A DNA stretch of 55,786 nt from Acidobacteriota bacterium (GTDB taxonomy: Bacteria > Acidobacteriota > UBA6911 > RPQK01 > JAJDTT01). This document shows, piece after piece, positions 35,943 to 51,632 of this stretch. The stretch spans positions 1 to 55,786 of the forward strand of contig JAJDTT010000304.1 in NCBI GenBank assembly GCA_022827025.1. Direction: 5' to 3'. Under the pieces are notes generated by a model. The model was not told the origin of the DNA. It was given only the letters and a program-made list of their open reading frames with translations, and did not search any database. A program made the position numbers and the translations under genes. Each line of letters begins with the position of its first letter. The first letter of the stretch is position 1.

Positions 35943-38900
35943 ATGACCGCTGACTCCAAGGGCCGCGAGCTCTTCATCGTCGACAACAGTGTCTCCGGTT
36001 GGACCGGACTCCGGTACTTGGAGGAATGGTCCAGCATTGCGAATGCGTTCGATATTGCGACCGGATACTTTGAGATCGGTGCCCTGCTTGCCCTCGACGA
36101 CAAATGGCAGGGGCTCGACAAAATCCGGATCCTAATGGGGGCAGAGACTACTCATCGGACTCGGAAGGCCATTCTCGAAGCCGTCCGGGCGCAAGCGCTC
36201 AACAAGCTTGATGAAAGCATCGAGGAGGACAAGGAACCGAACCCCTTCCTCAACGGGGTCCCTGCAATCCTCGACGCGCTCCGCTCCGGGAAGATCGAAT
36301 GCCGTATCTTCGCCAAGGCCAAATTCCACGCCAAGGCCTATATCACTCACGCGAAGCTTGAGATCATCGGTGCCCAGGCTCTGGTGGGCTCCAGCAACTT
36401 CACGCGTCCGGGTCTCACCAAGAATGTCGAGCTGAACGTCCAAATCCAGAGTGCGCGCGAGGTCGCGCAGCTTCAGGAGTGGTTCGAAACGCACTGGAGA
36501 AAAGCGACCGGGGTTACCGAGGCCGTCATCGAGACGATCTCCCGTCATACGCACCTGTATTCGCCATTCGACGTCTACACGAAGGCACTCCAACAGTTCT
36601 TCCGGGGGCACGAGCTGACCGCGACCGAGTGGGACGAGACAAGGTCGCGGATGTTCCCGAACCTGGATCGATATCAGAAGGAAGCGTACTGGGCGCTCAT
36701 GAAGATCGCCCGGCAGCATCGCGGTGCGTTCCTCTGTGACGGGGTAGGTCTTGGCAAGACGTTCGTCGGTCTGATGCTGATCGAGCGGCTCATCCTTCAC
36801 GAGGGCAAGCGTGTTGCACTGTTCGCTCCTAAGGCGGCCAAGGAGGGGGTGTGGGAACCTCACTTGCGACGATGGCTTCCGCACATCGGCGGAGTCGGAG
36901 GTGGCGGGGACTTTAGCAACCTAGCCGTCTTCAGCCACACGGACCTTGGACGAAAGGGCGAGTTCCCGGAGCGATTCCGGCGCATTTCGGAACTCGCAGA
37001 TATCGTCATAATCGACGAAGCGCACCACTTCCGGAATCCGGGCCGTCGTCGTGACCCCGACAGAGGAATCGAACCGTCGCGCTACCATCGCCTGTTAGAG
37101 CTGCTCGGCAACCCGGAACGCCCCAAGACAGTGTTCATGCTGACGGCTACACCCATAAACAACCGCCTGAGTGACTTTCGCCACATGACCGAACTCTTTA
37201 CGGGTGGCGACGACACCTATTTCGCGCGCACGATCGGCATTAACCACCTGCGGGCGCACTTCAACCAGATGGAAAAGATGCTTCGCAGCCGTGTGGAGCA
37301 GGATGCGGTGGATGCTGCCGAGCACATGACCGAAGCCCAGGAAATCCTCTTCACCGACACATTCTTCCGCCAACTCGTCGTCCAGCGGAGCCGCGCTTAC
37401 GCCCGGGAGAGCCAAGTTCGGGAGTACGGTAAAGCAGCTGCCTTTCCCAAGCGTAGGGACCCTCAGGTAGCGGCGTACTCGATCCGGAAAACATACGGGC
37501 GGATGCTCGAGCTGTTCGAGAAGGCCTTCGCCAAGCAGAGCCCGCTCTTCACGCTCCCGATGTACTACCCCCTCTATTGGTACAAGGGGCCGGACAAGGA
37601 GATCGACCCATTCGAAGAAAACCGCCAGAAGCAGGTAGTTGGCCTAATCCGGACTAACTTTCTAAAGCGCTTCGAGAGCTCCGTCGCCGCCTTCGAGCTC
37701 TCCTGCGAGCGCCTGCTCAAGAAACTGCTTGCCTTCCTTGAGGTTCACAGCCAGAGCGACTCCGAGAAGAAACGCGTAGAGCGCTGGAAGGCGCAGAACG
37801 CCGAGGTCCTGGGCTATGGTGGCCGGCGCCAGCTCGAGCTCTGGGGCGAGGAAGACAACGACGCGGACGATGAAGACGTCGTCCCCCAGGAAATGCTCGA
37901 CGCGGTGGAACGCCTCGACAGGGCCGAGTACGACGTCGAGGAGATGATGTTCGAGACCTTCCTCGACCTTGATCAGATCGTTCAGTTCCTGGACGAGGCT
38001 CGGAAGTTCGAGCCGAAACACGACGACAAGCTCCAGAAGCTCGTCCGCCTGCTCAAGACAAAAGCTGTGGTCGACCAGAAGATTTTGATCTTCACCGAGT
38101 TCGCCGACACGGCCCGCTACCTGAAGCGTCAACTAGACGAGGTCGATATCGAAGGCGTTGAGCAGGTGGACAGTGCCACGAAGAAGAATCGTTCAGACGT
38201 AATCCAGCGCTTCGCGCCCTACTACAACGGGCTCTCGTCTCCGGAACTCGCCGAGCAGGGCCGCGAGGAGACCCGTGTTTTAATCTCCACCGATGTTCTC
38301 TCCGAGGGTCTCAACCTGCAAGACGCCTCGCGCATGATCAACTACGATATCCACTGGAACCCAGTCCGCCTCATGCAGCGTATCGGCCGAGTTGATCGGC
38401 GCATGAATCCCGCAATTGAGGAGCGGCTCGTCGCCGACCATCCCGAGGCGGCCGCCTCGCGAGGCAAGGTCTGGTTCTGGAACTTTCTCCCTCCCCAGGA
38501 ACTGAACGAGATCCTATCGCTTTACACCAAGGTCACGCAGAAGACGCTCCTGATCTCCGAAACCCTCGGTATCGAGGGGAAGAAACTCCTCACGCCGGAG
38601 GACAATTTCGAGGCGCTGAAGGAGTTCCATCACGCCTACGAGGGCACACGCACGGCCGTGGAGGACATGCACCTTGAGTACCAGGCGCTTATTCAGGCCG
38701 ACCCGGAACTGGAGGCCCGTCTCGCTCGCTTCCCCGGCGCGATTTTCAGCGGTCGCAAGCGGTTGGTGAAGGGCGTGCGCGGCGTCTTCTTCTGCTACGC
38801 GCTTCCCGCCCTCGACAAGGAGCAGAACGAGTTTACCGAGGAGGCCGGCACCACCCGCTGGTACCTGTACGACCTCGACCGCGAGACCATCCTCGAGGAA

Positions 38901-39092
38901 CCGGGTGAAATAGTCGTGAGCATCCGCTCGAAGCCCAAGACGCCCCGACGCTGCACCGCTGAGGAGAAAACGCTCCTAGACATCCGAAAACGCATCAACA
39001 AACATATCAAAAACAGCTACCTGAAGCGTGTGGATGCCCCCCTCGGGGTCAAACCGCGGCTACTCTGCTGGATGGAGTTGAACGAGAGCTAA
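35943..39092 (+). CDS. PLD-nuclease/SNF2-family helicase (restriction-type)
   Basis: The 1049-residue protein joins a phospholipase-D-like nuclease domain to an SF2 translocase. The nuclease half has one HxK site at His129-Lys131 (KFHAKAY) and [10 protein letters not shown] just after. The helicase half has CDGVGLGKT (265-273), IDEAHH (357-362) and [10 protein letters not shown] (399-408). The second RecA domain has [25 protein letters not shown] and [13 protein letters not shown]. It should move on double-stranded DNA and cut it, with the next gene supplying recognition and modification. It is the first gene of the five-gene operon, 4 bp before the methyltransferase gene. DISARM and BREX also use such helicases, but their marker genes are absent. 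Confidence 0.88.
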
Positions 39093-39096
39093 ATCG

Positions 39097-42000
39097 ATGC
39101 CGAACGACCACCGCAAGCGCCTCGCCCGAATTCGTCGCTTCGACCAACTCGTATGCTACCTCCGCGACGAGCTGAATTGGCCAATCGACTCGGATGACTT
39201 CGAAGACCTGTTTTTCGACTATAGCCCCGAGGAACTCGGCATCGACGAGAAGAACGCGGCCAAGATCCAGAAGATCAAGCGCCTGAGACCGCTCGTACCA
39301 ACCCAGCCTTGGGGAATCTTCTACATTAAGTTCGAGCCCACGCGCCTGCCCGTCGTGGCACTGCGCCGTATCCTCAATCAGGTGGCGCTAAAAAAGCGCC
39401 CCTCGGCCAACAAGCCCGAGCGCCAGGCCTGGGCCACCGAGGATCTTTTGTTTGTCTCCAGCTACGGCGAGGTCAAGGAACGCCAGATCGCGTTCGCCCA
39501 TTTCTCGAAGCCCGACGACGGCCACGACCTGCCCACCCTCAAGGTACTCGGCTGGGACAACCTCGACACGCCGCTCCACCTAGACGCCGTCGCCCGCAAA
39601 CTGACTGACTACCTAACTTGGCCCGACGATGAGGACGACCCAGACACTTGGCGTGAGCAATGGCGCGGCGCCTTCACACTGCGCCACCGCGAGGTTATTA
39701 CCACCTCGAAACGGCTCTCCGACCGCTTGGCCAAGTTGGCCCGCAAGATCCGCAACCGCATCCGGAGAGTTTTGGCCATCGAGACCGAATCCGGGCCACT
39801 CACCAAGCTGATGACGGCGTTCCAGGCCGCCCTCGTCCACGACCTGGACGAGGATGGCTTCGCCGACATGTATGCCCAGACCATCGCGTATGGGTTGCTC
39901 TCGGCGCGCATAACCGACCCCGAGCGGCGTACAGCCGACGACCTCACCGCCCATATGCGGACGAACCCATTCCTGAAGGATCTGATGGAAACCTTCCTTC
40001 ACGTCGGTGGTCGGCGCGGCAAAGCCGGCGGCCCGGGCATTGACTTCGACGAATTAGGCGTTTCCGAGGTGGTAGAATTACTCGATCACGCCAGGATGGA
40101 GGCTGTCGTTCGTGACTTCGGCGACCGCAACCCCCAAGAAGACCCGGTTATCCACTTCTACGAGCATTTCCTCAAGGCCTACGACAAGAATCAGAAGGTT
40201 AGCCGCGGCGTCTTTTACACCCCGCGCCCCGTGGTCTCCTACATCGTGCGTTCGGTGGATGAGTTATTGCGGACGGAGTTTGGGTTAGAGGATGGTCTTG
40301 CGGACACTACAACTTGGCGGGAGATGGCAAAGGGCCAACAGGATCTCAGGATCCCCGATGACACGCCTCCCGACCAGGCATTCGTACAGATCCTTGACCC
40401 TGCTGCGGGGACCGGCACCTTCCTCGTTCAGGTCATCGACCTTATTCACAGGACGATGGTGGAGAAGTGGAAGTCACAGGGCCACGGCGAGAAGAAGATC
40501 AATGCGTTCTGGAACGACTATGTCCCGACGCACCTGCTGCCGCGTCTGCACGGCTATGAACTGCTGATGGCGCCCTATGCCATCGCGCATCTCAAGGTCG
40601 GCCTAAAGCTCTATGAGACCGGATACCGCTTCCGGAGCGACGAGCGCGCGCGAGTGTACTTAACTAACGCGCTGGAGCCAGCGGGAAGCAAGCAGCTCAA
40701 ACTGGACTTCCTGCCGGCCCTGGCGCAAGAGGCCCAGGCGGTCAATGAGATCAAACGAAAGCAACGGTTCACGGTGGTGATTGGGAATCCGCCCTACTCA
40801 GGCATATCGTCGAACATGGGTCCGTGGATCGATGGCCTTCTCAAGGGTCGCCTCCCAGATGGGACGGCGACCTCCAGCTACTACCGTGTCGACGGCAAGC
40901 CGCTCGGTGAGCGCAAGGTGTGGCTTCAGGACGACTACGTAAAGTTTATTCGCCTCTCGCAGTGGTTGCTCGATGCCGCTGGTGCGGGCGTTCACGGCTA
41001 CATCAGTAATCACGGCTACCTCGACAACCCCACGTTTCGTGGGATGCGGTGGTCGCTCATGCAGTCCTTTCGTCGAATCTGCGTGCTCGACTTTCACGGA
41101 AACCTCAAGAAGAAGGAGACTCCGCCGGGGGGCGGGCGCGATGTCAACGTATTCGACATCCAGCAGGGCGTGGCCATTGGGCTCTTCACGAAGTCTGACA
41201 CAGTCAGCAGATGTGTCCGGCACGCTGATCTCTGGGGCGAACGGGGACAAAAGTACCGTTGGCTATGGGAGCATGGGTACGCCGACACCGGATGGTCGCA
41301 ACTGCAACCGAGGCCGCCGTTCCGTCTGTTCGAGCCCTACGACCACGTAGGAACAAGTGCCTACAATAGATGGCCAGCAATCAACGAGGTGATGACCGTA
41401 TACGTGACTGGAATCGTCACCGCGCGCGATGCATTCGTCATCGATTTCGACCGGGAAATCCTCCGAAGTCGGATCGTCGACCTGCGATCCAGGTCACTGT
41501 CCGACGACGAAATCCGGACCAAGTACTTCGTCGGGAAGGGCTCGAAAAAGTATCCGCCCGGAGACTCTCGCGGATGGAAACTTCCTGCTGCACGGCGGAA
41601 GATCCGCGAGGACGATAAGTGGGATGAAAGGTATAAGACTGTGCTATATCGTCCGTTCGACATCCGGGAAATTTACTATGTCCCGTGGATGGTGGACTGG
41701 CCTCGGACCGAAGCCATGCCTCACATGTTGGCAAGAGAGAACTACGCGATTGTTACGGCTAGGAGCAACAAGTTTCCGGAACCCAATCACTTTTTCTGTA
41801 GCCGCACAATTGTCGAAACAAAGTGTGGTGAAGCCAGCACACAGTCTGCCACGTTTCCACTTTATCTTTATCCCGGCGTCGGCAGGACCGACAGGGCACT
41901 TTTCAGCCGTTGGTCGAAGGGTAAGGACGGTCGCACGCCGAATCTGGCGTCGAGGTTTGTCGACCAGATTGCCGCCGCCGCCGAACTACGTTTCATCAGC

Positions 42001-43134
42001 GACGGTCGTGGCAATCTCCGCGAAAACCTCGGCCCCGAGGACGTCCTAGGCTGGATGTACGCGGTATTCCACAGCCGCTCCTACCGCGAGCGCTATGAGG
42101 CCCCGCTCAAGCTCGATTTCCCCCGCGTGCCGCTACCTGGAAGTGGTGAGCTCTTCCGAAAGCTCGTGGAGGCTGGACATGAGTTGCTGAGCCTTCACTT
42201 ACTCGATTCCCATAGGATCGATAGGTTAATCAACACGTTTATCGGCCCGATGAACCCCGAAGTTGGTCGCGTCGGCTGGTCGGACGGCACCGTCTGGCTC
42301 GACGCCAGGAAGACCATCGCCCGCGAGGGCCACCGTGCGATCAGATCCGGTACCGTCGGCTTTCGGGGCGTGCCCGAGGCGGTCTGGGAATTCCACATCG
42401 GCGGCTACCAAGTCTGCCACAAGTGGCTCAAGGATCGGAAGGGCCGCACGCTCTCGGACGAGGACATCGCCCACTACCAGAAGATCGTCGTCGCCCTGAA
42501 CGAGACCATCCGTATCATGGCCGAGATTGATCATGTCATCGAAGCCCACGGCGGCTGGCCCGACGCGTTCCAGACCGGGCCGGAGGCGGATGCGGCATCG
42601 AAGCGGACGAGGAAGGTGGTTCCAATCTGGCCGCGCACGATCGAGCCCGCGCGCGAAGACCTCTACGTCAACTGCGTTCCACTCGTCCCGCTTAGGGCGG
42701 CCGCTGGCGGCTTCGGCGATACGCAGCACATCGATGACAACGACTTCGAATGGGTCGCTGTCGAGTCGCGGCATCGTCTGCGAAAGGGGATGTTCGTTGC
42801 CCAGGTCATCGGCAAGTCCATGGAGCCCGCTATCCCCGACGGAGCCTTGTGCCTCTTTCGCGCTCCGGTCGAGGGAACGCGCCAGAGCAAAACGGTCCTC
42901 GTCCAGCTCCGAGACGCTACCGATCCCGAGACGGGTCAGCGCTACACAGTCAAGCGCTACAAGAGCGCAAAGTCGAGGGTCGGCGACTCCTGGCGCCACA
43001 GTAAGATCACCCTTGAGCCCGTCAACCCGGACTTCCACCCTATCGTGCTCACCGGCGCGGACGAGGGAGAGTTCCAAGTAATCGCGGAGCTCGTCGAGGT
43101 TTTAGAACACAAGGCGTCTCTCGGCGGAGAATGA
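39097..43134 (+). CDS. Type ISP-like N6-adenine methyltransferase fused to an S24 peptidase domain
   Basis: The 1345-residue protein has an amino-methyltransferase core: [18 protein letters not shown] near residue 353, the SAM motif [11 protein letters not shown] near 431 and catalytic NPPYS near 562. The region [13 protein letters not shown] to [13 protein letters not shown] (about 852) and FPLYLYPG resembles the C-terminal specificity part of Type ISP enzymes. The last 130 residues are unexpected: a LexA/UmuD-like S24 domain with [16 protein letters not shown] (nucleophile Ser near 1240), a candidate general-base Lys in YTVKRY near 1283, and [10 protein letters not shown]. This suggests a methyltransferase that can cleave itself, or is controlled by such cleavage. 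It lies 4 bp after the helicase gene and 6 bp before the ATPase gene. Confidence 0.85.
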
Positions 43135-43140
43135 CTCCCG

Positions 43141-44979
43141 ATGAAGGTGCACGCTCTTTCGATACGCGACTTCCGCGGCGTTCAGCACGCCGACTTGCGT
43201 TTCGACCATCATGATGTGCTTGTGGGTCCCAACGGCACCGGCAAGAGCACAATCATCGACGCTCTGTCTCTTGTCTTCGGCCGCACTCGCCTAGTGCGTG
43301 ACCTTACGGAACACGACTTCTACGGCAGCCTTCCTGAAGCGACGAGTCGCATCCGCATCGTCGCTACCTTGGCGGGATTCGATGGTGATGACCCGGAGCG
43401 CAACGACACTTGGTTCCGCGAAGGTCGAGCAGTTCCCAAGTGGTGGAACTCTTCGACGGGCCAGTTAGAGCCCGAGCCTGGTGATCATGCCGAGACCCTT
43501 TGCGCACAGATTGCCTTTGCGGCGCGTTTCGACTTGGAGGAACTGGTGGTCGAATCGATCCGCTACTTCCACGATGATGACGACGTTGAAGATCCATTCC
43601 TGGACGATGTTGTCCAGCCCATTCCAATTCGGCTCTTCGACGACATCGGCTACTATGTTCTACCAGCGCGTCGCACCTGGGAAGCAGCCGCATCGTTCGC
43701 TTCGGAGTTGTTCCGCAGGGCCGTCGCGACCGTGGGCGGCATCCCGGCGCGCACTATTCTCCAAGAGCGCGATCGTCTGCGTAGGCCCGCTGATCCGCTG
43801 GAGGAAACGGTGGGCCTCTGTCCATTGGTGGGACGCATCAACCGGCAGTTGGAGGAGTTGTTGCCCGACGCCCCTCGTTTTCAACTCAGGCTCACGGCGA
43901 CGGACTCCGAATCGCTGCTTCGCGCACTGGTACCGCATTACGTTGGCAGAGAAGGTGTTCCACTCCCTGTCGGGCGGCACGGGATGGGCCTGCTCTCGCT
44001 TCAGACCTTCATTCTTCTGCTCGAACTCGGACGAGAGCGGGTTCGCTTAGGTAAGCCATTCCTCTTCGCGATGGAGGAGCCCGAGTTGCATGTCCCACCA
44101 GGAATGCAGCGCCGGTTGGTCTCGCAGGCCGTATCGATCGCCGAGCAGACGATCTGCACCAGTCATTCGCCTCGTGTCGCCGCATTCTACCCCGCGACCT
44201 CGGTACAGATCCTCGATCGCAACCGGGCGCGTCTCGTAGCGATCCCCATGTTGCCAGCGCCCTTGAATGGGAGCGCGACAAACGCGCGACGCAAGCTCTT
44301 TCAGGATGATCGCGTGCGGCTCGTCGAGGCGTTGATGCACCACAGAGTGCTCATCCCCGAAGGACGTAGCGAGTACGAGTGGTTTCGGCTGTTGAGCCAT
44401 GTGCTCGAAACGGGCGACATTGCATTCGACGCCCCCGATACCGACACGCCCGCCTTCGGTACCGTCATAGGCGTGGTGCCGACTCACGATGGAGCGGTGG
44501 AGGAGGTCTACGATGCCCTGCGGTTGTTGCGACGTGGATTGGTTCCTCTTGTGGATGGGGATGACGCCGGAGCCGAGAAGATCGACCGAATGCAGAGTTC
44601 CGACCCGATTCCGGACCTCATCCTGAGATGGCGCGATGGCTGGACGATAGAGGACGCAATAGGCTGGCTCCTTAAGGGCGACGAGGAAGCTGCACTTGCC
44701 GCACTGCAAGACCGAATTGATTGTGATTTCGAGTCCATTGGTGAACTGGTCGATTTGTTCAAGGTCAGCACCGGTCGGGGTCGCTTGAAGACCGACTACC
44801 TTGCCTATCAAGAAGTGGCCTATGTCATCGGTAACCTTCCCGGCTGTCGGACTCGCGCCGCAGATCTACTTGAGGCCGTCACGCTTGCAACACTAAGTAA
44901 CGCGGATGGTTGCGCGTTAATACGGCTAGACGATGAGCACAGCACCGTGGACGCGGCCGTATTCCGTCTCGAACCATGA
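43141..44979 (+). CDS. OLD-family ATPase with TOPRIM nuclease domain (GajA-like)
   Basis: The 612-residue protein opens with an ABC-type ATPase: LSIRDFRGVQHADLRF, Walker A VGPNGTGKSTIIDAL (33-41), VGRHGMGLLSLQTFILLL as the signature region, Walker B FLFAMEEPELH and TSHSPRV. A TOPRIM domain follows, with the acidic LIPEGRSEYEWFRLL and PLVDGDDAGAEK. This order matches OLD nucleases and GajA of the Gabija defence system, in which the ATPase regulates DNA nicking by TOPRIM. It overlaps the next gene, a UvrD-like helicase, by ATGA, the same pairing as gajA-gajB. It also follows the methyltransferase by 6 bp, which is not usual for stand-alone Gabija. Confidence 0.86.
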   Translation: MKVHALSIRDFRGVQHADLRFDHHDVLVGPNGTGKSTIIDALSLVFGRTRLVRDLTEHDFYGSLPEATSRIRIVATLAGFDGDDPERNDTWFREGRAVPKWWNSSTGQLEPEPGDHAETLCAQIAFAARFDLEELVVESIRYFHDDDDVEDPFLDDVVQPIPIRLFDDIGYYVLPARRTWEAAASFASELFRRAVATVGGIPARTILQERDRLRRPADPLEETVGLCPLVGRINRQLEELLPDAPRFQLRLTATDSESLLRALVPHYVGREGVPLPVGRHGMGLLSLQTFILLLELGRERVRLGKPFLFAMEEPELHVPPGMQRRLVSQAVSIAEQTICTSHSPRVAAFYPATSVQILDRNRARLVAIPMLPAPLNGSATNARRKLFQDDRVRLVEALMHHRVLIPEGRSEYEWFRLLSHVLETGDIAFDAPDTDTPAFGTVIGVVPTHDGAVEEVYDALRLLRRGLVPLVDGDDAGAEKIDRMQSSDPIPDLILRWRDGWTIEDAIGWLLKGDEEAALAALQDRIDCDFESIGELVDLFKVSTGRGRLKTDYLAYQEVAYVIGNLPGCRTRAADLLEAVTLATLSNADGCALIRLDDEHSTVDAAVFRLEP

Positions 44980-46259
44980 GCCTCTGCTTGATCGAAGGTC
45001 CAGCTGGGACCGGCAAGACGACGCGACTATTTCAGAAACTTGGGCGTGTGCTTGAAAAGTGTCCGTTGTCGGAGCACCAGCGAGTCCTTGCACTGACCAA
45101 GATGCACGGATCGCGGCGACGCATGGATAATCAACTTCGAGCCATTTCAGGGCTTCGACGGCGGTATCGTTGCTGCACCGCCGATAGCTTCGCATGGAGC
45201 ATCGTGCGGCGCTGGCGAACGCTTGTTCGAAAAACGTCGGCAGCGGAACTGGCCGAGGATGACTATGAGCAGGTCTGTTTACTCGCCGGCGATCTGCTCT
45301 CCGAAGCGATAGTCTCGCGTTGGGTCATCCGGGTATTCCCAATCGTTGTTGTGGACGAGTTCCAGGATTGTAAGCGTGGACAGCTGGCAATGATTTCCTC
45401 GCTCTCCAGCTTGGCGACCTGCATCGTAGCGGCCGATGACTTTCAGGATCTGGAGAGCACCGAAGTGAGTGCTTCAGTCGCGTGGGCACGGACCAATGGT
45501 GAAAGCGAGAGTCTGAGTGACATCCACCGGACGTCAGCATCAGGTCTCCTGGAAGCGAGTCGAGCTCTTCGAGCAGGACGTAACTTTTCTCATAAGGGAG
45601 ATGGCTTCACCGTGCTGGGCGCACACAACCACTACGTTGGGGCTAGCTTCGTTTCCAACAACCTTACGTGGTGGTGGAGATCCGCCGACATCGCGGTTCT
45701 AACTCCAGTTCGTCCCTCCGGCTCGGCATTTGTGCGTGATCTCTTCGCCCGAGTGAAGGCAAAGCCGATTGGCAAGCATCAGGTGGGTCCGTATCAAATA
45801 CCGTGGGAGGTATCGCAGGAAGATGGGTGCGAAAGGTTTATTGAAGGACTTGGGTTGCCCGACGACCCCAATGCTGAGGTCCGCTTTGATGTGCTCTCAT
45901 TCGGTGATGTCGATGGGCCGCGGTGGGGACTTCGCCATTGGATTGACCGGCAGAGGCGCGTCGCCGGAAGGACGACATTCACGGTTGAAGAGATCCAGCG
46001 TGAGGCACGCCGCATCCATCAGCGGTCGAGAGCGTACCGGCGGGTGAGGGCCCGCGGAGTTCGTGCGATGACGATCCATCAGGCGAAGAATCGCGAGTTC
46101 GAATCAGTCATCGTCCTATGGCCCTACCAAGTCGCTGGCGCCATCGAGCGCCAGCAACGCCTGCTATACAACGCGATTACTCGGGCAAAGTTGCGTGTCC
46201 TCGTTGTGGTTCAGAATCCCAGGCGATTGGAACAGCCACCGTTCGTAGCCGTGAGTTGA
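44976..46259 (+). CDS. UvrD/PcrA-like SF1 helicase (GajB-like)
   Basis: The short SF1A helicase of 427 residues has motif I EGPAGTGKTTRLF, motif II VVVDEFQDCK, ADDFQDLES (motif III-like), motif V MTIHQAKNREFESVIVL and motif VI LLYNAITRAKLRVLVVV. It lacks the large 1B/2B insertions of UvrD, as GajB does. It starts inside the stop of the OLD/TOPRIM gene (ATGA), so the two products are made together and probably form a complex. It ends 4 bp before the RecD-like gene. Confidence 0.86.
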   Translation: MSLCLIEGPAGTGKTTRLFQKLGRVLEKCPLSEHQRVLALTKMHGSRRRMDNQLRAISGLRRRYRCCTADSFAWSIVRRWRTLVRKTSAAELAEDDYEQVCLLAGDLLSEAIVSRWVIRVFPIVVVDEFQDCKRGQLAMISSLSSLATCIVAADDFQDLESTEVSASVAWARTNGESESLSDIHRTSASGLLEASRALRAGRNFSHKGDGFTVLGAHNHYVGASFVSNNLTWWWRSADIAVLTPVRPSGSAFVRDLFARVKAKPIGKHQVGPYQIPWEVSQEDGCERFIEGLGLPDDPNAEVRFDVLSFGDVDGPRWGLRHWIDRQRRVAGRTTFTVEEIQREARRIHQRSRAYRRVRARGVRAMTIHQAKNREFESVIVLWPYQVAGAIERQQRLLYNAITRAKLRVLVVVQNPRRLEQPPFVAVS

Positions 46260-46263
46260 TTGG

Positions 46264-49200
46264 ATGATCACCGGTGCTCGCCGTCTTCCACCCCACCACA
46301 TCACCATCCGCGTCCCGTGGCACGACGCGGGCTGGACCGGGACAGTGTGCACCCGGCCGTTGGACAATTCGAGCTGCCTCATCCTACCCCGCATCGGCGA
46401 GGGCAGGCGCGACGACGTGGAAGGGCGTTGTGCCAGCCGGCGGCTCGATCAACTTGACCGTTCCGACCTGCCGCCCTGCGTCGGAGAGCGCGTCTCGTTC
46501 ATGGCACCCTTCGCACTCACTCGGACGATGACGCACCCGTACACGGAATTCTACACGGAGACTCACGGCCACTTCGCTCCCACCCGTTTCGTGCAGCCTC
46601 CGTACTCTGCTGCTGCCGTGCCATTCCGATGGATGCTGCGCGAGAAGGTCGAGGGAAGTGCGAATGATGGCGAGATCGGAATCGCCGAGCGTCTGAAGAT
46701 CGGCTGGGTGCCGGACCGCGAGCCAGACATCCGCAATTACAAAGGCAAGCAGGTCGCGACGGCATGGGCCCAAGAGCGCGGGAATCAGGTCGCACTACTC
46801 GACACCTTTTTCAGCGCGCTCCGGCCGGAGGAGTCACTCTGTTTCTTCTATGCCAAACGCACTCCGCTCTCGGAGCAGTCCCGGCGCGTGATCGTTGGCG
46901 TTGGCCGCGTGCTCTCCGTGGGAGGGGTCACCGAGTACGCCTACAAGGGCAAGCAACCGCCGCTACGGTGCGTGCTCTGGGAGCGCAACGTGGGCCATTC
47001 GATCCGACCGGGCTTCGCGGACGGCTTCCTCTTTCCGTACCAGGAGGCGCTGACGCTCGCTGAACGCGGCGGGGTAGATCCCGAGGAGTTCGTGACCTTC
47101 GCCCCGGACGAGCATTTCGACTCCTACTCCTACGGTTCGGAACTCTTGACCCATGACGGCGCTGTGGCTTCCCTCGTGGCCTGTGCGGCGGCGCTGCACC
47201 GGATCCGCGGCCGGATCGAGGGACCGTGGGACCAAGCCCTCGCCTGGATTGACACGCAGCTCAACCGGTTGTGGAAGGCCCGCGGTGCGTTCCCCGGCCT
47301 GGGTTCGGCACTCTCTGCGTTCGGTTACGAGTGGGGATTCCGGCACGGGAGCCTGCTCGCCTACGAAATCGAACTCCTGCGCGAGCGCGAGGGCGGCGGT
47401 GATCCGTGGACGCTCGTGGACGCCGTGATGAGTGAGCCGGCGAAACTCGGTGGGCCCGTGGCGAAGCTACTCACGGGAGGGCTGCGCAAGGGCTGGAAGC
47501 GCCTCTCCGATGAGCGGCGGGCTTTGCTCCAGCTCCTCGGTCGTTGCGCCATCTCGGAGGATCAGGCGCAGCGCTTCTACGACACCACAGCGCGGGCGGA
47601 TGCCGGCATCGAGGCCAGCGACGCCGAACTGCTTCGAAATCCGTACCTCCTCTTTGAGCGCGACCGGCGTGCAGTCAAACCGATCGCCTTTGGCGCGGTG
47701 GACCGAGGCCTATTCCCGGATGAGAAGGTGCGGGAGCAGTTCCCTGTACTGGAGCCGAGCCGGGTCGAAGACCCGGCGGATGGACGGCGGGTGCGCGCAC
47801 TGGTCGTGGACCTCCTGGAGCACGCAGCGGCTGAAGGACACACGCTGCTCCCCCGGAGTTGGGTGATCCGCAGGGCACGGGAGCGCGCGCTCCAGCCGCC
47901 TTGCCCGCTCGGGGAGAACGTGCTCGACGCCTGCGAGGAGAGCTTCGCGCCGGTCGTCGCTCGCGCGGCAACCCGCGCGGGAGATCCCGCCTACCAAATG
48001 GACCGACTCATCGAGTGCCGCACGATCATCCGCCGCGAAGTGATCGGCCGGAAGAAAGGGAAGTCGCACGTGGGTGATCACGATTGGCGCGGGCTTGTCG
48101 ATGAGGGTATCGATGAGCCGCTGCCTGCGGATCCGGAAGAGCGCAAGCTGGAGACGCGTGCTCGGCGTGAGAAGGCGGTTGCCCTTGAGCAACTCTTCCG
48201 CTCGCGGCTCTCCGTGCTGATCGGCCCGGCGGGGACGGGAAAAACGACGCTGCTGCGGATGCTGTGCTCGCTTCCCGGGCTCGCGGAGAAAGGGCTACTG
48301 CTTCTTGCACCCACGGGGAAGGCACGCGTGCGCCTAGAGGCTCAGACAGGGATGCAGGGCTCTGGTCAGACGCTGGCGCAGTTTCTGATCCGCCAGCAGC
48401 GTTACGATGCGGAGACCGGCGCCTACGTTCCAAGGCCCAGGGTGCCTCGCTGTCGCAACTACCGGACCGTGATCGTGGACGAGTGCTCAATGCTGACCGA
48501 AGAGCAGCTAGCAGCACTGATCGATTCACTCAATTTCGTCGAGCGAATCGTGCTCGTTGGGGATCCACGCCAGCTCCCGCCGATCGGGGCCGGTCGCCCA
48601 TTCGTGGACATAGTTCGAGAGCTCGAACCGGAGAACGTCGAGAGACTCTTCCCGCGCTACGGTCCGGGTTATGCCGAACTCACAGTTCCGCGACGGCAGC
48701 GACGCGGGGCAGACGTGCTCCTGGCGTCGCACTTCGATGGGAAACCGCTCGATCCTGGCGCAGATGCCGTTCTTGAAGAGGGCGCGGAAGGAACTCAAGA
48801 ACGCCTCCGGCTCGTGCGATGGAACCACCCGCAGGAGCTTCATGAGAAGCTCGTCGCCGAGCTGGTGGAGGCGCTGGGTATGGCCGGCCCGGACGACGAA
48901 CTGGGCTTCGAGGAATCGTTGGGAGGTGCGCGTCGCGGAAACATCCCATGGGCCTTCTTCTGGAACCGGTTCGCCGACAACCCCGGAGCCGCCGCCCGGG
49001 CGGAAGCTTGGCAGATGCTGTCGCCCGTACGTGCCGGGCTCGTTGGGGTGGACGCGCTTAACCGAATGCTCCAAACGCGGTTCCGGGTGAAGGTGCGCGA
49101 GCTTGCCGAGACGGAGGGTTGGGGCCGCAAGGTACCGCGTCCCGTCGGCCCGCAGATGCTCCTTTACGGCGACAAGGTCATCAACGTCATCAACCAGCGT

Positions 49201-50067
49201 CGGCGCGATGTCTGGCCGAGGCCCGCTCGGGAGGCTTACCTCGCCAACGGAGACATCGGCATCGTCGTCGGACAGTACAAGACAAGGAAATTCAGGGGCA
49301 TGCCGTGGAAACTCGAGGTTGAGTTCGCCGGGCAGCTCGGCCCCAAGTACGGATTCTATCCCGGCGAGTTCGGAGACGAAGGCCGCAACCCGCTCGAACT
49401 GGCCTACTGCCTTACGGTGCACAAGACTCAGGGAAGCGAGTTCGGCGTCACCTTCGTCGTGCTCACCAACCCCTGCTGGCTGCTCTCCCGCGAGCTCTTG
49501 TACACGGCGCTGACCCGCCACCAAGACCGGCTGGTCATCCTGCACGAGGGCCCGCTTGTCGAGTATCGTGGCTTTGCAGGCGACGAGCACTCGGAGATCG
49601 CCCGGCGCATGACGAACCTCTTTGTGGACCCGCTACCGTGCGAAGTAACGGTCAACGCTCAGAAACGTTTCCTTGAGGAAGGGCTTATTCATCGGACCGA
49701 GCGCGGTGATCTGGTGCGCTCAAAGTCCGAACTGGTGATTGCCGACAAGCTTCACGCCCGCGGGATCGACTACGCCTATGAGCAGCCTCTCGTGCTGTCC
49801 AATGGTCGCACCCGCTACCCGGATTTCACGATCGCGGATTACGCGCGCGGCGTGACCTTCTATTGGGAGCATCTCGGCATGCTCGACGATCCGGGGTACA
49901 AAGATCGATGGCACCGGAAGCGTAAAGAGTACCTGGAGTGCCAAATCAAGCCTCACGAGGACGGCGGAGGCCCGGATGGAACGCTGATCGAAACCCGCGA
50001 CGAGCCGGGCGGAGGCTTGGATGCAGCGGTGATCGCAGCGGTGATCGATGGTGTGATCTTGGGTTGA
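46264..50067 (+). CDS. RecD-like SF1 helicase with C-terminal PD-(D/E)XK-type nuclease domain
   Basis: This 1267-residue protein begins with about 600 residues that I cannot assign. The SF1B helicase core shows IGPAGTGKTTLLRML near 652, LAPTGKARVRLE, VIVDECSML near 737, VGDPRQLPPIGAGRPF near 765, YCLTVHKTQGSEFG near 1049 and RELLYTALTRH near 1076. The last 110 residues contain KSELVIADKL (Glu), RYPDFTIAD (Asp) and FYWEHLGML (Glu), the spacing of a restriction-endonuclease fold nuclease. The fusion of a RecD2-type helicase with a nuclease suits end processing or degradation of invading DNA. It is the last gene of the operon. Confidence 0.82.
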   Translation: MITGARRLPPHHITIRVPWHDAGWTGTVCTRPLDNSSCLILPRIGEGRRDDVEGRCASRRLDQLDRSDLPPCVGERVSFMAPFALTRTMTHPYTEFYTETHGHFAPTRFVQPPYSAAAVPFRWMLREKVEGSANDGEIGIAERLKIGWVPDREPDIRNYKGKQVATAWAQERGNQVALLDTFFSALRPEESLCFFYAKRTPLSEQSRRVIVGVGRVLSVGGVTEYAYKGKQPPLRCVLWERNVGHSIRPGFADGFLFPYQEALTLAERGGVDPEEFVTFAPDEHFDSYSYGSELLTHDGAVASLVACAAALHRIRGRIEGPWDQALAWIDTQLNRLWKARGAFPGLGSALSAFGYEWGFRHGSLLAYEIELLREREGGGDPWTLVDAVMSEPAKLGGPVAKLLTGGLRKGWKRLSDERRALLQLLGRCAISEDQAQRFYDTTARADAGIEASDAELLRNPYLLFERDRRAVKPIAFGAVDRGLFPDEKVREQFPVLEPSRVEDPADGRRVRALVVDLLEHAAAEGHTLLPRSWVIRRARERALQPPCPLGENVLDACEESFAPVVARAATRAGDPAYQMDRLIECRTIIRREVIGRKKGKSHVGDHDWRGLVDEGIDEPLPADPEERKLETRARREKAVALEQLFRSRLSVLIGPAGTGKTTLLRMLCSLPGLAEKGLLLLAPTGKARVRLEAQTGMQGSGQTLAQFLIRQQRYDAETGAYVPRPRVPRCRNYRTVIVDECSMLTEEQLAALIDSLNFVERIVLVGDPRQLPPIGAGRPFVDIVRELEPENVERLFPRYGPGYAELTVPRRQRRGADVLLASHFDGKPLDPGADAVLEEGAEGTQERLRLVRWNHPQELHEKLVAELVEALGMAGPDDELGFEESLGGARRGNIPWAFFWNRFADNPGAAARAEAWQMLSPVRAGLVGVDALNRMLQTRFRVKVRELAETEGWGRKVPRPVGPQMLLYGDKVINVINQRRRDVWPRPAREAYLANGDIGIVVGQYKTRKFRGMPWKLEVEFAGQLGPKYGFYPGEFGDEGRNPLELAYCLTVHKTQGSEFGVTFVVLTNPCWLLSRELLYTALTRHQDRLVILHEGPLVEYRGFAGDEHSEIARRMTNLFVDPLPCEVTVNAQKRFLEEGLIHRTERGDLVRSKSELVIADKLHARGIDYAYEQPLVLSNGRTRYPDFTIADYARGVTFYWEHLGMLDDPGYKDRWHRKRKEYLECQIKPHEDGGGPDGTLIETRDEPGGGLDAAVIAAVIDGVILG

Positions 50068-50423: not shown

Positions 50424-50464
50424 ATCCTTGTAAATTATCCATTAGGTGGATAATTTACAAGGAT
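50424..50464. promoter_or_regulatory. perfect 18-bp palindrome overlapping the ATPase start codon
   Basis: ATCCTTGTAAATTATCCA (50424-50441) and its exact reverse complement (50447-50464) are separated by TTAGG. The right arm includes the AAGG ahead of the ATG and the first two bases of that ATG (50463). In DNA it is a good operator candidate. In RNA the hairpin would hide the ribosome-binding site and start. It is AT-rich in GC-rich surroundings. Confidence 0.75.
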
Positions 50465-51632
50465 GATAGAGCGGTATATCAAGCCCCGCGTTCTTGAGGC
50501 GCTTGGTTACCAGGCGGCGGTGGCTCTTATCGGCCCGCGCCAAGCTGGCAAGACCACGCTCGCGCTGGACATCGGCGAAGAGCGCGGGGCGCTTTATCTC
50601 GACCTCGAAGACCGAACCGATCGGCAAAAGCTGAGCGACCCGGCGCTGTTCCTGAGCCATTACGAAGACCGCCTCGTGATTCTCGATGAAATCCACAGAG
50701 TTCCCGACCTGTTTCAGGATCTTCGAGGGGTCATCGACAGCGGCCGGCGGCGAGGAAAACGGACCGGACGATTCCTGATCCTCGGCTCCGCGTCGATGGA
50801 TCTGTTGCGCCAGTCCAGCGAGAGTCTTGCCGGCCGGATCGCCACTATTGACCTGCAGCCGTTCCACATCCTCGAGGTGGCGGGCGGCAGGGACACGCTC
50901 ACCCGGCTCTGGGTGCGGGGCGGCTTCCCGGACAGTTTTCTGGCCGTTGACGGAAGGCGTAGCTTTCTACTTCGCAAGGACTTTATCCGGACGTACCTGG
51001 AGCGCGACGTCGCCCTGTTCGGGCCCCGCCTCCCCGCGGAAACGCTGGAACGACTGTGGGTCATGCTGGCCCACAGCCAGGGAGGCCTGTTGAATGCCTC
51101 CCGGCTGGCTTCGTCATTGGGTGTCAGCGTGCAAACCGTGAATCGCTATATCGGACTCTTGACCGATCTGTTGCTGGTGCGGCGCCTGGCTCCTTTTCGC
51201 GCCAATATCGGGAAACGGCTTGTGAAATCGCCGAAGATCTACATACGCGACAGCGGCCTGCTGCATGCTCTGCTCGGCATTGGCGATTTCAATGCGCTGG
51301 CCGGCCATCCTGTGGCCGGCGCCAGTTGGGAAGGATATGTGATCGAGAACCTGCTCGCGGCCGCCCCGGAACGGACGACAGCCAGTTTTTACCGCACTTC
51401 CGCCGGCGCCGAGGTCGATCTCGTGCTCCAGTTGCCGACCGGCGAACTGTGGGCGATAGAGATCAAGCGGGGCCGCGCCCCGAGACTGGACCGCGGCTTC
51501 CACAACGCCCGCGCGGACCTGAGTCCGGCCCATGCGTTCGTCGCGCATTCCGGCGACGAGCGCTTCCCGGTCACCGAAGGCGTTGAGGCGATCAGCGTCT
51601 CCCAACTGGCGATGTTGCTTCAGAACGCATGA
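50463..51632 (+). CDS. AAA-family ATPase with DUF4143 domain
   Basis: The 389-residue product has an AAA_14-type ATPase domain: ALIGPRQAGKTTLALDI (22-38), LVILDEIHRVPDLFQDLR and RFLILGSAS. A central winged-helix stretch (LNASRLASSLGVSVQTVNRY) follows, then the C-terminal DUF4143 region with GAEVDLVLQLPTGELWAIEI, which has the look of a PD-(D/E)XK fold. These proteins are common and mobile in bacterial genomes and their role is not settled. The gene and its palindromic leader lie alone between PhyH tail copies 2 and 3, so they seem to be a separate cargo unit at the same target. Confidence 0.88.
   Translation: MIERYIKPRVLEALGYQAAVALIGPRQAGKTTLALDIGEERGALYLDLEDRTDRQKLSDPALFLSHYEDRLVILDEIHRVPDLFQDLRGVIDSGRRRGKRTGRFLILGSASMDLLRQSSESLAGRIATIDLQPFHILEVAGGRDTLTRLWVRGGFPDSFLAVDGRRSFLLRKDFIRTYLERDVALFGPRLPAETLERLWVMLAHSQGGLLNASRLASSLGVSVQTVNRYIGLLTDLLLVRRLAPFRANIGKRLVKSPKIYIRDSGLLHALLGIGDFNALAGHPVAGASWEGYVIENLLAAAPERTTASFYRTSAGAEVDLVLQLPTGELWAIEIKRGRAPRLDRGFHNARADLSPAHAFVAHSGDERFPVTEGVEAISVSQLAMLLQNA

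What the first reader, a model, noticed from the sequence alone, without database searches (positions are those of the whole stretch)
46264..50067. RecD-like helicase with terminal nuclease and a large unassigned N-terminal half
Seen: SF1B motifs from about residue 650 and a Glu/Asp/Glu pattern (KSELVIAD, RYPDFTI, FYWEHLGM) at 1153-1200. The first 600 residues match nothing I know. Inference: a single-protein analogue of a helicase-nuclease, possibly the effector of the operon, with an N-terminal sensor.
Basis: partly seen in the sequence, partly recalled or inferred. Interest (0 to 1): 0.65.

Follow-up and report, generated by a model that had tools for sequence, protein, structure and literature searches.

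The report
RecD2-like helicase-nuclease with new N-terminal module
This gene encodes one long protein that joins a conserved but unidentified front module, a DNA-unwinding motor and a DNA-cutting tail; it belongs to a widespread, already catalogued but untested family of candidate anti-virus proteins that often sits inside DNA-methylation-based bacterial defence systems.

Summary
It is a full-length member of a catalogued family, PADLOC PDC-S68 ('phage defence candidate'; 1518 bits). I found no published characterisation. Three corrections follow. (1) Only about residues 1-400 are unassigned: 414-603 fold like the pre-motor domain of RecD2 (Z 10.2, 155 residues) and 505-785 match the RecD2 profile. 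(2) The tail is a PD-(D/E)xK-type nuclease domain: its model (pLDDT 88) matches I-Bth0305I, Bax1 and Vsr (Z 8.3-9.9), with Glu/Asp/Glu conserved in 62 of 63 homologues. (3) It is not an obligatory effector of this operon. Of 78 loci, 29 show no close same-strand neighbour; elsewhere it lies inside BREX type 3 (directly after brxC) or beside type I, II or III R-M genes. DNA methyltransferases lie within 10 kb in 20 of 48 loci, against 0 of 40 random windows. The likeliest mechanism is a one-protein, ATP-driven helicase-nuclease that destroys foreign DNA, aimed by its N-terminal module. That this module is an EVE/YTH-like modified-base reader is a lead, not a result.

The parts
46264..50067 (+). 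RecD2-like helicase-nuclease, 1267 aa, PADLOC PDC-S68 family
   Evidence: ORF; PDLC05065 1518 bits over 10-1264
46264..47223 (+). N-terminal module, residues 1-320; mixed alpha/beta; possibly EVE/YTH-like with an insertion of about 145 residues
   Evidence: model pLDDT 93.5; no Pfam match; weak EVE/YTH leads; negative tests
46297..46479 (+). Invariant H12, R16, W19, H20, D21, W24, C29, C38, C72 (possible metal site, untested)
   Evidence: 63 of 63 homologues
46741..47217 (+). Residues 160-318: proposed barrel core (W168, Q175, Y196, G212, W239, Y259)
   Evidence: conservation; hhalign P 0.007 to EVE
47503..48072 (+). RecD2-type pre-motor region, residues 414-603 (end of helix-hairpin-helix region and winged helix)
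   Evidence: Z 10.2 to RecD2 3gp8, 155 aa; HHH_RecD2 E 2.6e-5 in homologue L053
48166..49548 (+). SF1B (RecD2/RecD-type) helicase motor, residues 635-1095
   Evidence: AAA_30, UvrD_C_2, TIGR01448; PDB 3e1s, 1w36
48223..48246 (+). Walker A, residues 654-661
   Evidence: invariant
48478..48483 (+). Walker B D739-E740
   Evidence: invariant
49576..50064 (+). PD-(D/E)xK-type nuclease domain, residues 1105-1267 (E1156, E1173, P1186-D1187, E1202-H1203, K1219)
   Evidence: model pLDDT 88 and Z 8.3-9.9 to I-Bth0305I, Bax1, Vsr; conserved in 62 of 63
35943..39092 (+). Operon gene 1: HKD/PLD + SNF2-type helicase
   Evidence: PADLOC C3a139 HKD+Snf2, Pfam PLDc_2, Helicase_C
39097..43134 (+). Operon gene 2: N6-adenine methyltransferase with Type ISP specificity domain and C-terminal S24 peptidase-like domain
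43141..44979 (+). Operon gene 3: OLD/GajA-type ATPase (GajA model covers residues 1-425)
44976..46259 (+). Operon gene 4: short UvrD/GajB-type helicase, 427 aa

Best explanation
A single-protein, ATP-driven DNA helicase-nuclease that acts as a self-contained anti-phage/anti-plasmid factor and as an add-on to modification-based defence systems. Proposed steps: the N-terminal module (about 1-320) recognises a feature of the target DNA; the RecD2-type SF1B motor (about 400-1095) loads and translocates, unwinding the duplex; the C-terminal PD-(D/E)xK-type domain (1105-1267) cuts the DNA, so the target is degraded while host DNA, marked by the partner methyltransferase or lacking the trigger, is spared. 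Shown by sequence or structure prediction: the domain order, intact motor motifs, the nuclease fold with conserved acidic residues, conservation of the whole architecture across bacteria and archaea, and association with DNA-modification systems. Inferred: antiviral activity, DNA as substrate, the order of steps, what the N-terminal module senses, and self/non-self discrimination through methylation.
For: PDC-S68 full-length match, 1518 bits. SF1B motor: AAA_30, UvrD_C_2, RecD2 profile 185.7 bits, PDB RecD2 and RecD. C-terminal model pLDDT 88, Z 9.9/9.2/8.6/8.3 to I-Bth0305I, Bax1, NGO0050, Vsr. ATPase and nuclease residues conserved in 62-63 of 63 homologues. 79 loci including archaea, most of them full length. 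Partners: BREX type 3 brxF-brxC-[this]-pglXI-brxHII-pglZ-brxA, with brxC ending 4 bp into this gene in several loci; type I R-M; IIG/ISP-type; type III. MTase within 10 kb in 20 of 48 loci against 0 of 40 background windows. Type I association scattered over the tree, 6 changes. Gene 1 - gene 2 - this gene recurs in G268 at 56/50/46% identity with no recognised gene between and in L002 with a DRT1a gene between.
Against: No activity has been shown; PDC-S68 is only a candidate class. Foldseek gave no PDB match below E 0.001 for either model; the fold claims rest on VIA-align Z of 8-10, and Z under 8 can be a common arrangement. The nuclease has E-x-H rather than the usual E-x-K (WEH; K1219 is downstream). 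Defence-island clustering could by itself produce the methyltransferase neighbourhood, and 13 of the 20 MTase-positive loci supplied the query MTases.
Confidence: 0.72

Rival explanations
1. It is a modification-dependent restriction enzyme: residues about 8-318 form an EVE/YTH-like (PUA superfamily) reader that binds a modified base, in phage DNA or as a self mark from the partner methyltransferase, and licenses or blocks the motor and nuclease. This is a sharper form of the best explanation.
For: Foldseek rank 5 of the PDB is 2p5d (MJECL36, UPF0310; E 0.41), which an EVE profile also hits, at E 0.026. VIA-align gives Mmi1 YTH Z 6.4, 125 residues, 3.5 A, model range 8-315. hhalign to EVE P 0.007-0.011 with W168, FFYAK and VGVGRV in matching order and W239 too in the longer alignment; above 120 shuffles in that run. 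W168, Y196, W239 and Y259 conserved. Recurrent MTase partners.
Against: No Pfam EVE match at E up to 10. One of 58 unrelated family windows scored higher. Comparison with UPF0310-type EVE gave P 0.61, and shuffles there reached 22.5, as high as the EVE score. Global alignment failed. A3 found no EVE or YTH chain in the PDB by sequence. YTH Z 6.4 is in the middling range. Both structure hits are weak and come from the 640-residue model, not from the domain alone.
Confidence: 0.38
2. It is an end-processing helicase-nuclease (a one-chain functional analogue of RecBCD/AddAB) that degrades DNA already cut by the partner restriction system or exposed at replication forks; the N-terminal module is a DNA-end or junction clamp and reads no modification.
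For: RecD2-type motor and nuclease tail; the best nuclease fold neighbours include Bax1, solved with XPB helicase and forked DNA (entry titles). Occurrence without close partners fits a general role.
Against: The many invariant aromatic and Cys/His positions in the N-module suggest specific recognition (inference); patchy distribution (5 of 297 genomes of the phylum) does not fit housekeeping repair.
Confidence: 0.3
3. It is a dedicated effector of this five-gene operon, switched on by the other four proteins.
For: Five genes with gaps of -4 to 6 bp on one strand; gene 1 - gene 2 - this gene recurs in G268 and L002.
Against: 29 of 78 loci show no close same-strand neighbour (some lie at contig ends); partners elsewhere are BREX 3 or type I/III R-M.
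Confidence: 0.15
4. It is an ordinary RecD2 repair helicase.
For: RecD2 profile 185.7 bits; RecD2-type pre-motor domain.
Against: Far below the RecD2 curated cut-off of 500 bits; extra N-module and nuclease; patchy distribution; defence context.
Confidence: 0.04

Closest known systems
PADLOC PDC-S68 (phage defence candidate; from my own knowledge the PDC series comes from Payne et al., bioRxiv 2024, doi 10.1101/2024.01.29.577857, cited in PMC12629846)
   Same: Whole length, 1518 bits, residues 10-1264
   Different: Nothing structural; the library held no paper naming PDC-S68. The domain dissection, the coupling to brxC in BREX 3 and the repeated type I association are what is added here
RecD2 (SF1B helicase, TIGR01448)
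   Same: Pre-motor helical/winged-helix region and motor with motifs
   Different: 185.7 bits against a cut-off of 500; extra front module and C-terminal nuclease
RecBCD / AddAB
   Same: Helicase plus nuclease logic
   Different: One chain; RecD-like motor only; nuclease nearer to I-Bth0305I/Bax1/Vsr by fold
EVE-HNH modification-dependent restriction enzymes (VcaM4I, PMC7897488)
   Same: Possible reader plus nuclease architecture
   Different: Reader identity unproven; adds an SF1B motor; PD-(D/E)xK-type instead of HNH
BREX type 3 auxiliary nucleases (PMC12839542)
   Same: Nuclease embedded in BREX core loci
   Different: That paper's main text does not contain 'RecD'; it names HARE-HTH, CR-ATPase and SF2-helicase fusions of the REase
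Gabija (GajA/GajB)
   Same: Two adjacent genes of this operon (43141-46259) resemble GajA and GajB
   Different: Separate genes; not found in G268 and L002, where the other three genes recur

Membership tests
PADLOC PDC-S68 | Full-length match to the family profile | tested here: met
   PDLC05065 E 0, 1518 bits, 10-1264 of 1267
RecD2 (TIGR01448) | Curated equivalog cut-off (500 bits) | tested here: not met
   185.7 bits
SF1B / RecD-type helicase superfamily | Walker A/B and later motifs, RecD-type core | tested here: met
PD-(D/E)xK superfamily | Fold of the C-terminal domain | tested here: met
   pLDDT 88; Z 8.3-9.9 to I-Bth0305I, Bax1, Vsr over 86-98 residues; Foldseek itself E 0.009 at best
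PD-(D/E)xK superfamily | Catalytic E...PD...(D/E)xK | tested here: inconclusive
   E1156, P1186-D1187, E1202 conserved in 62 of 63, but E-x-H in place of E-x-K, with K1219 conserved downstream
EVE domain (PF01878) | Pfam match | tested here: not met
   no match at E up to 10
EVE/YTH (PUA-like) fold | Barrel fold with aromatic cage | tested here: inconclusive
   YTH Z 6.4; UPF0310 protein at Foldseek rank 5; EVE hhalign P 0.007-0.011; controls mixed
EVE/YTH reader | Binds modified bases | not testable with these tools
   needs binding assays
Gabija effector | GajA or GajB homology of this protein | tested here: not met
   its PADLOC families are PDC-S68 and RecD types; GajA/GajB hit the neighbouring genes instead
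BREX type 3 component | BREX core genes beside it in the window | tested here: not met
   no BREX core set among the window's operon genes; true only of homologues such as L077

The most novel reading that the evidence does not exclude
An EVE/YTH-type modified-base reader, carrying a Cys/His-rich insertion, is fused to a RecD2 motor and a PD-(D/E)xK nuclease: a one-protein modification-sensing restriction enzyme shared as an interchangeable module by BREX type 3 and by type I, II and III R-M systems in bacteria and archaea.
Probability: 0.33. Interest if true: 0.72.

Novelty: new member of a known kind. Interest (0 to 1): 0.48.

Why it matters
If the mechanism holds, one helicase-nuclease module has been recruited again and again by otherwise different methylation-based immune systems. 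That gives a concrete, testable candidate for an accessory nuclease in BREX type 3, a system described as less explored (PMC12839542). The invariant residues (K660, D1187, W239, C29/C38/C72) make clean mutants possible.

Tried and rejected
EVE test by global hhalign, by UPF0310-type EVE and by profile search of the PDB: negative, so the EVE reading is kept as a lead only. An ASCH (PF04266) set was fetched but was too small and diverse to build a useful profile. A motif regular expression for methyltransferases missed known ones such as PglXI and was replaced by phmmer with a background. Gene 1 (HKD-SNF2) was sought in 38 genomes of the class: only in its own. In phages, only two short faecal phage records encode the N-half. 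Paper searches on RecD with BREX, EVE with RecD, and PDC-S68 found no description. VIA-align rows of winged-helix regulators (about 500-600) were read as the RecD2 winged helix, not as separate relatives. No metal-site geometry could be checked, since model coordinates are not readable here.

Full report
WHAT IS THERE. The ORF at 46264-50067 (+) is intact, 1267 codons from ATG, and is the last of five same-strand genes with gaps of -4 to 6 bp: an HKD/PLD-SNF2 helicase (35943), a Type-ISP-like N6 methyltransferase with an S24 peptidase-like tail (39097), a GajA-like OLD ATPase (43141), a short GajB-like UvrD helicase (44976) and this gene. The next gene, an AAA/DUF4143 protein, starts about 400 bp downstream.

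FAMILY. PADLOC places it in PDC-S68 over its whole length (1518 bits). PDC stands for 'phage defence candidate' (term used in PMC11514479); to my knowledge the series comes from a 2024 preprint cited in PMC12629846. No paper in the library names PDC-S68. A scan of bacterial and archaeal genomes returned 79 distinct loci, most matching residues about 8-1265 at 25-85% identity, in many bacterial phyla and several archaea. The window's phylum has it in 5 of 297 genomes, and gene 1 occurs in no other genome searched of its class, which suggests horizontal acquisition; operon G+C is 0.609 against 0.633 for the window.

DOMAINS. (a) Residues 1 to about 400: no Pfam match for 1-319; the model of 1-640 has pLDDT 93.5. 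H12, R16, W19, H20, D21, W24, C29, C38, C72, Y196 and W239 are invariant in 63 of 63. (b) Residues 414-603: RecD2-like (Z 10.2, 155 residues, 3.6 A to 3gp8), with HHH_RecD2 at E 2.6e-5 in an archaeal homologue. (c) Residues 635-1095: SF1B motor with motifs conserved. (d) Residues 1105-1267: PD-(D/E)xK-type fold (Z 9.9 I-Bth0305I, 9.2 Bax1, 8.6 NGO0050, 8.3 Vsr) with E1156, E1173, D1187, E1202-H1203 and K1219 conserved in 62 of 63; the usual E-x-K is E-x-H here.

IS THE N-MODULE AN EVE/YTH READER? For: Foldseek rank 5 is 2p5d, which an EVE profile also finds; the Mmi1 YTH domain scores Z 6.4 over model residues 8-315; hhalign to EVE gives P 0.007-0.011 and aligns W168, FFYAK and VGVGRV in order, with W239 in the longer alignment. 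Against: no Pfam EVE match; a failed comparison with UPF0310-type EVE, whose own positive control scored only modestly; one of 58 unrelated windows scoring higher; shuffles reaching 22.5 in the second control; failed global alignment; and no EVE chain found by sequence in the PDB. I put this at about 0.4.

NEIGHBOURHOODS. In BREX type 3 loci the gene lies between brxC and pglXI, e.g. L077: brxF, brxC, this gene, pglXI, brxHII, pglZ, brxA (same gene clusters in L050, L056, L063, L075, L076); in several, brxC overlaps its start by 4 bp (L050, L060, L076, L077). In others it accompanies type I R-M (L004, L015, L020, L036, L040, L051, L062), IIG/ISP-type methyltransferases (L002, L005, L008, L013, L033) or type III R-M (L014, L026). 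A methyltransferase lies within 10 kb in 20 of 48 loci with long flanks and in none of 40 random 20-kb windows from three genomes of the same phylum; 13 of those 20 supplied the queries, leaving 7 of 35 as the conservative figure. 29 of 78 loci have no same-strand neighbour within 160 bp, some at contig ends. In a tree of 63, the BREX 3 loci lie in one region (2 changes), while type I association needs 6 changes.

THE THREE-GENE CORE. Gene 1, gene 2 and this gene recur in order in G268 (L165) at 56, 50 and 46% identity with about 0.6 kb between genes 2 and 3 and only an overlapping ORF there, and in L002, where a DRT1a reverse transcriptase sits between them. In the window the GajA/GajB-like pair sits there. 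So the slot between methyltransferase and helicase-nuclease seems to hold variable cargo; this rests on three loci.

MECHANISM. Shown: domain order, intact motifs, predicted fold of the tail, conservation, context. Inferred: recognition by the N-module, translocation and unwinding, cutting, and sparing of host DNA. Activity is untested here.

NOVELTY. The protein is a member of an already catalogued candidate family, so the claim is 'new member of a known kind'; what is added is the domain dissection, the BREX 3 coupling and the repeated recruitment. The 2026 BREX survey (PMC12839542) describes auxiliary PD-(D/E)xK nucleases, including SF2-helicase fusions, but its main text has no mention of RecD; its supplements were not readable here.

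Noticed in passing
window 39097-43134: The methyltransferase carries a C-terminal S24 (LexA-type) peptidase-like domain (residues 1224-1332) that the related methyltransferases of L002 and G268 lack by tblastn.
   Followed up: partly
window 43141-46259; L002 6226-9972; L165 8837-9405: The slot between methyltransferase and RecD-like gene holds a GajA/GajB-like pair, a DRT1a gene, or no recognised gene in three loci.
   Followed up: partly
L068 10081-14853: The RecD-like gene is broken: a piece (residues 223-663) on + faces a - strand ORF in which a type III restriction subunit runs into the RecD-like C-terminus; rearrangement or assembly chimera.
   Followed up: no
L079 9959-10437: Only the first about 40 and last about 105 residues of the family remain, apparently a deletion remnant.
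   Followed up: no
L015 7244-9958: A DEDDh exonuclease domain joined to a RecD-like motor directly upstream of the PDC-S68 gene in a type I R-M locus.
   Followed up: no
L066 14139-20036: Druantia DruE-type protein beside a PDC-S68 gene.
   Followed up: no
window 50463-51632: AAA_14/DUF4143 ATPase, PADLOC PDC-S01, just after the operon.
   Followed up: no
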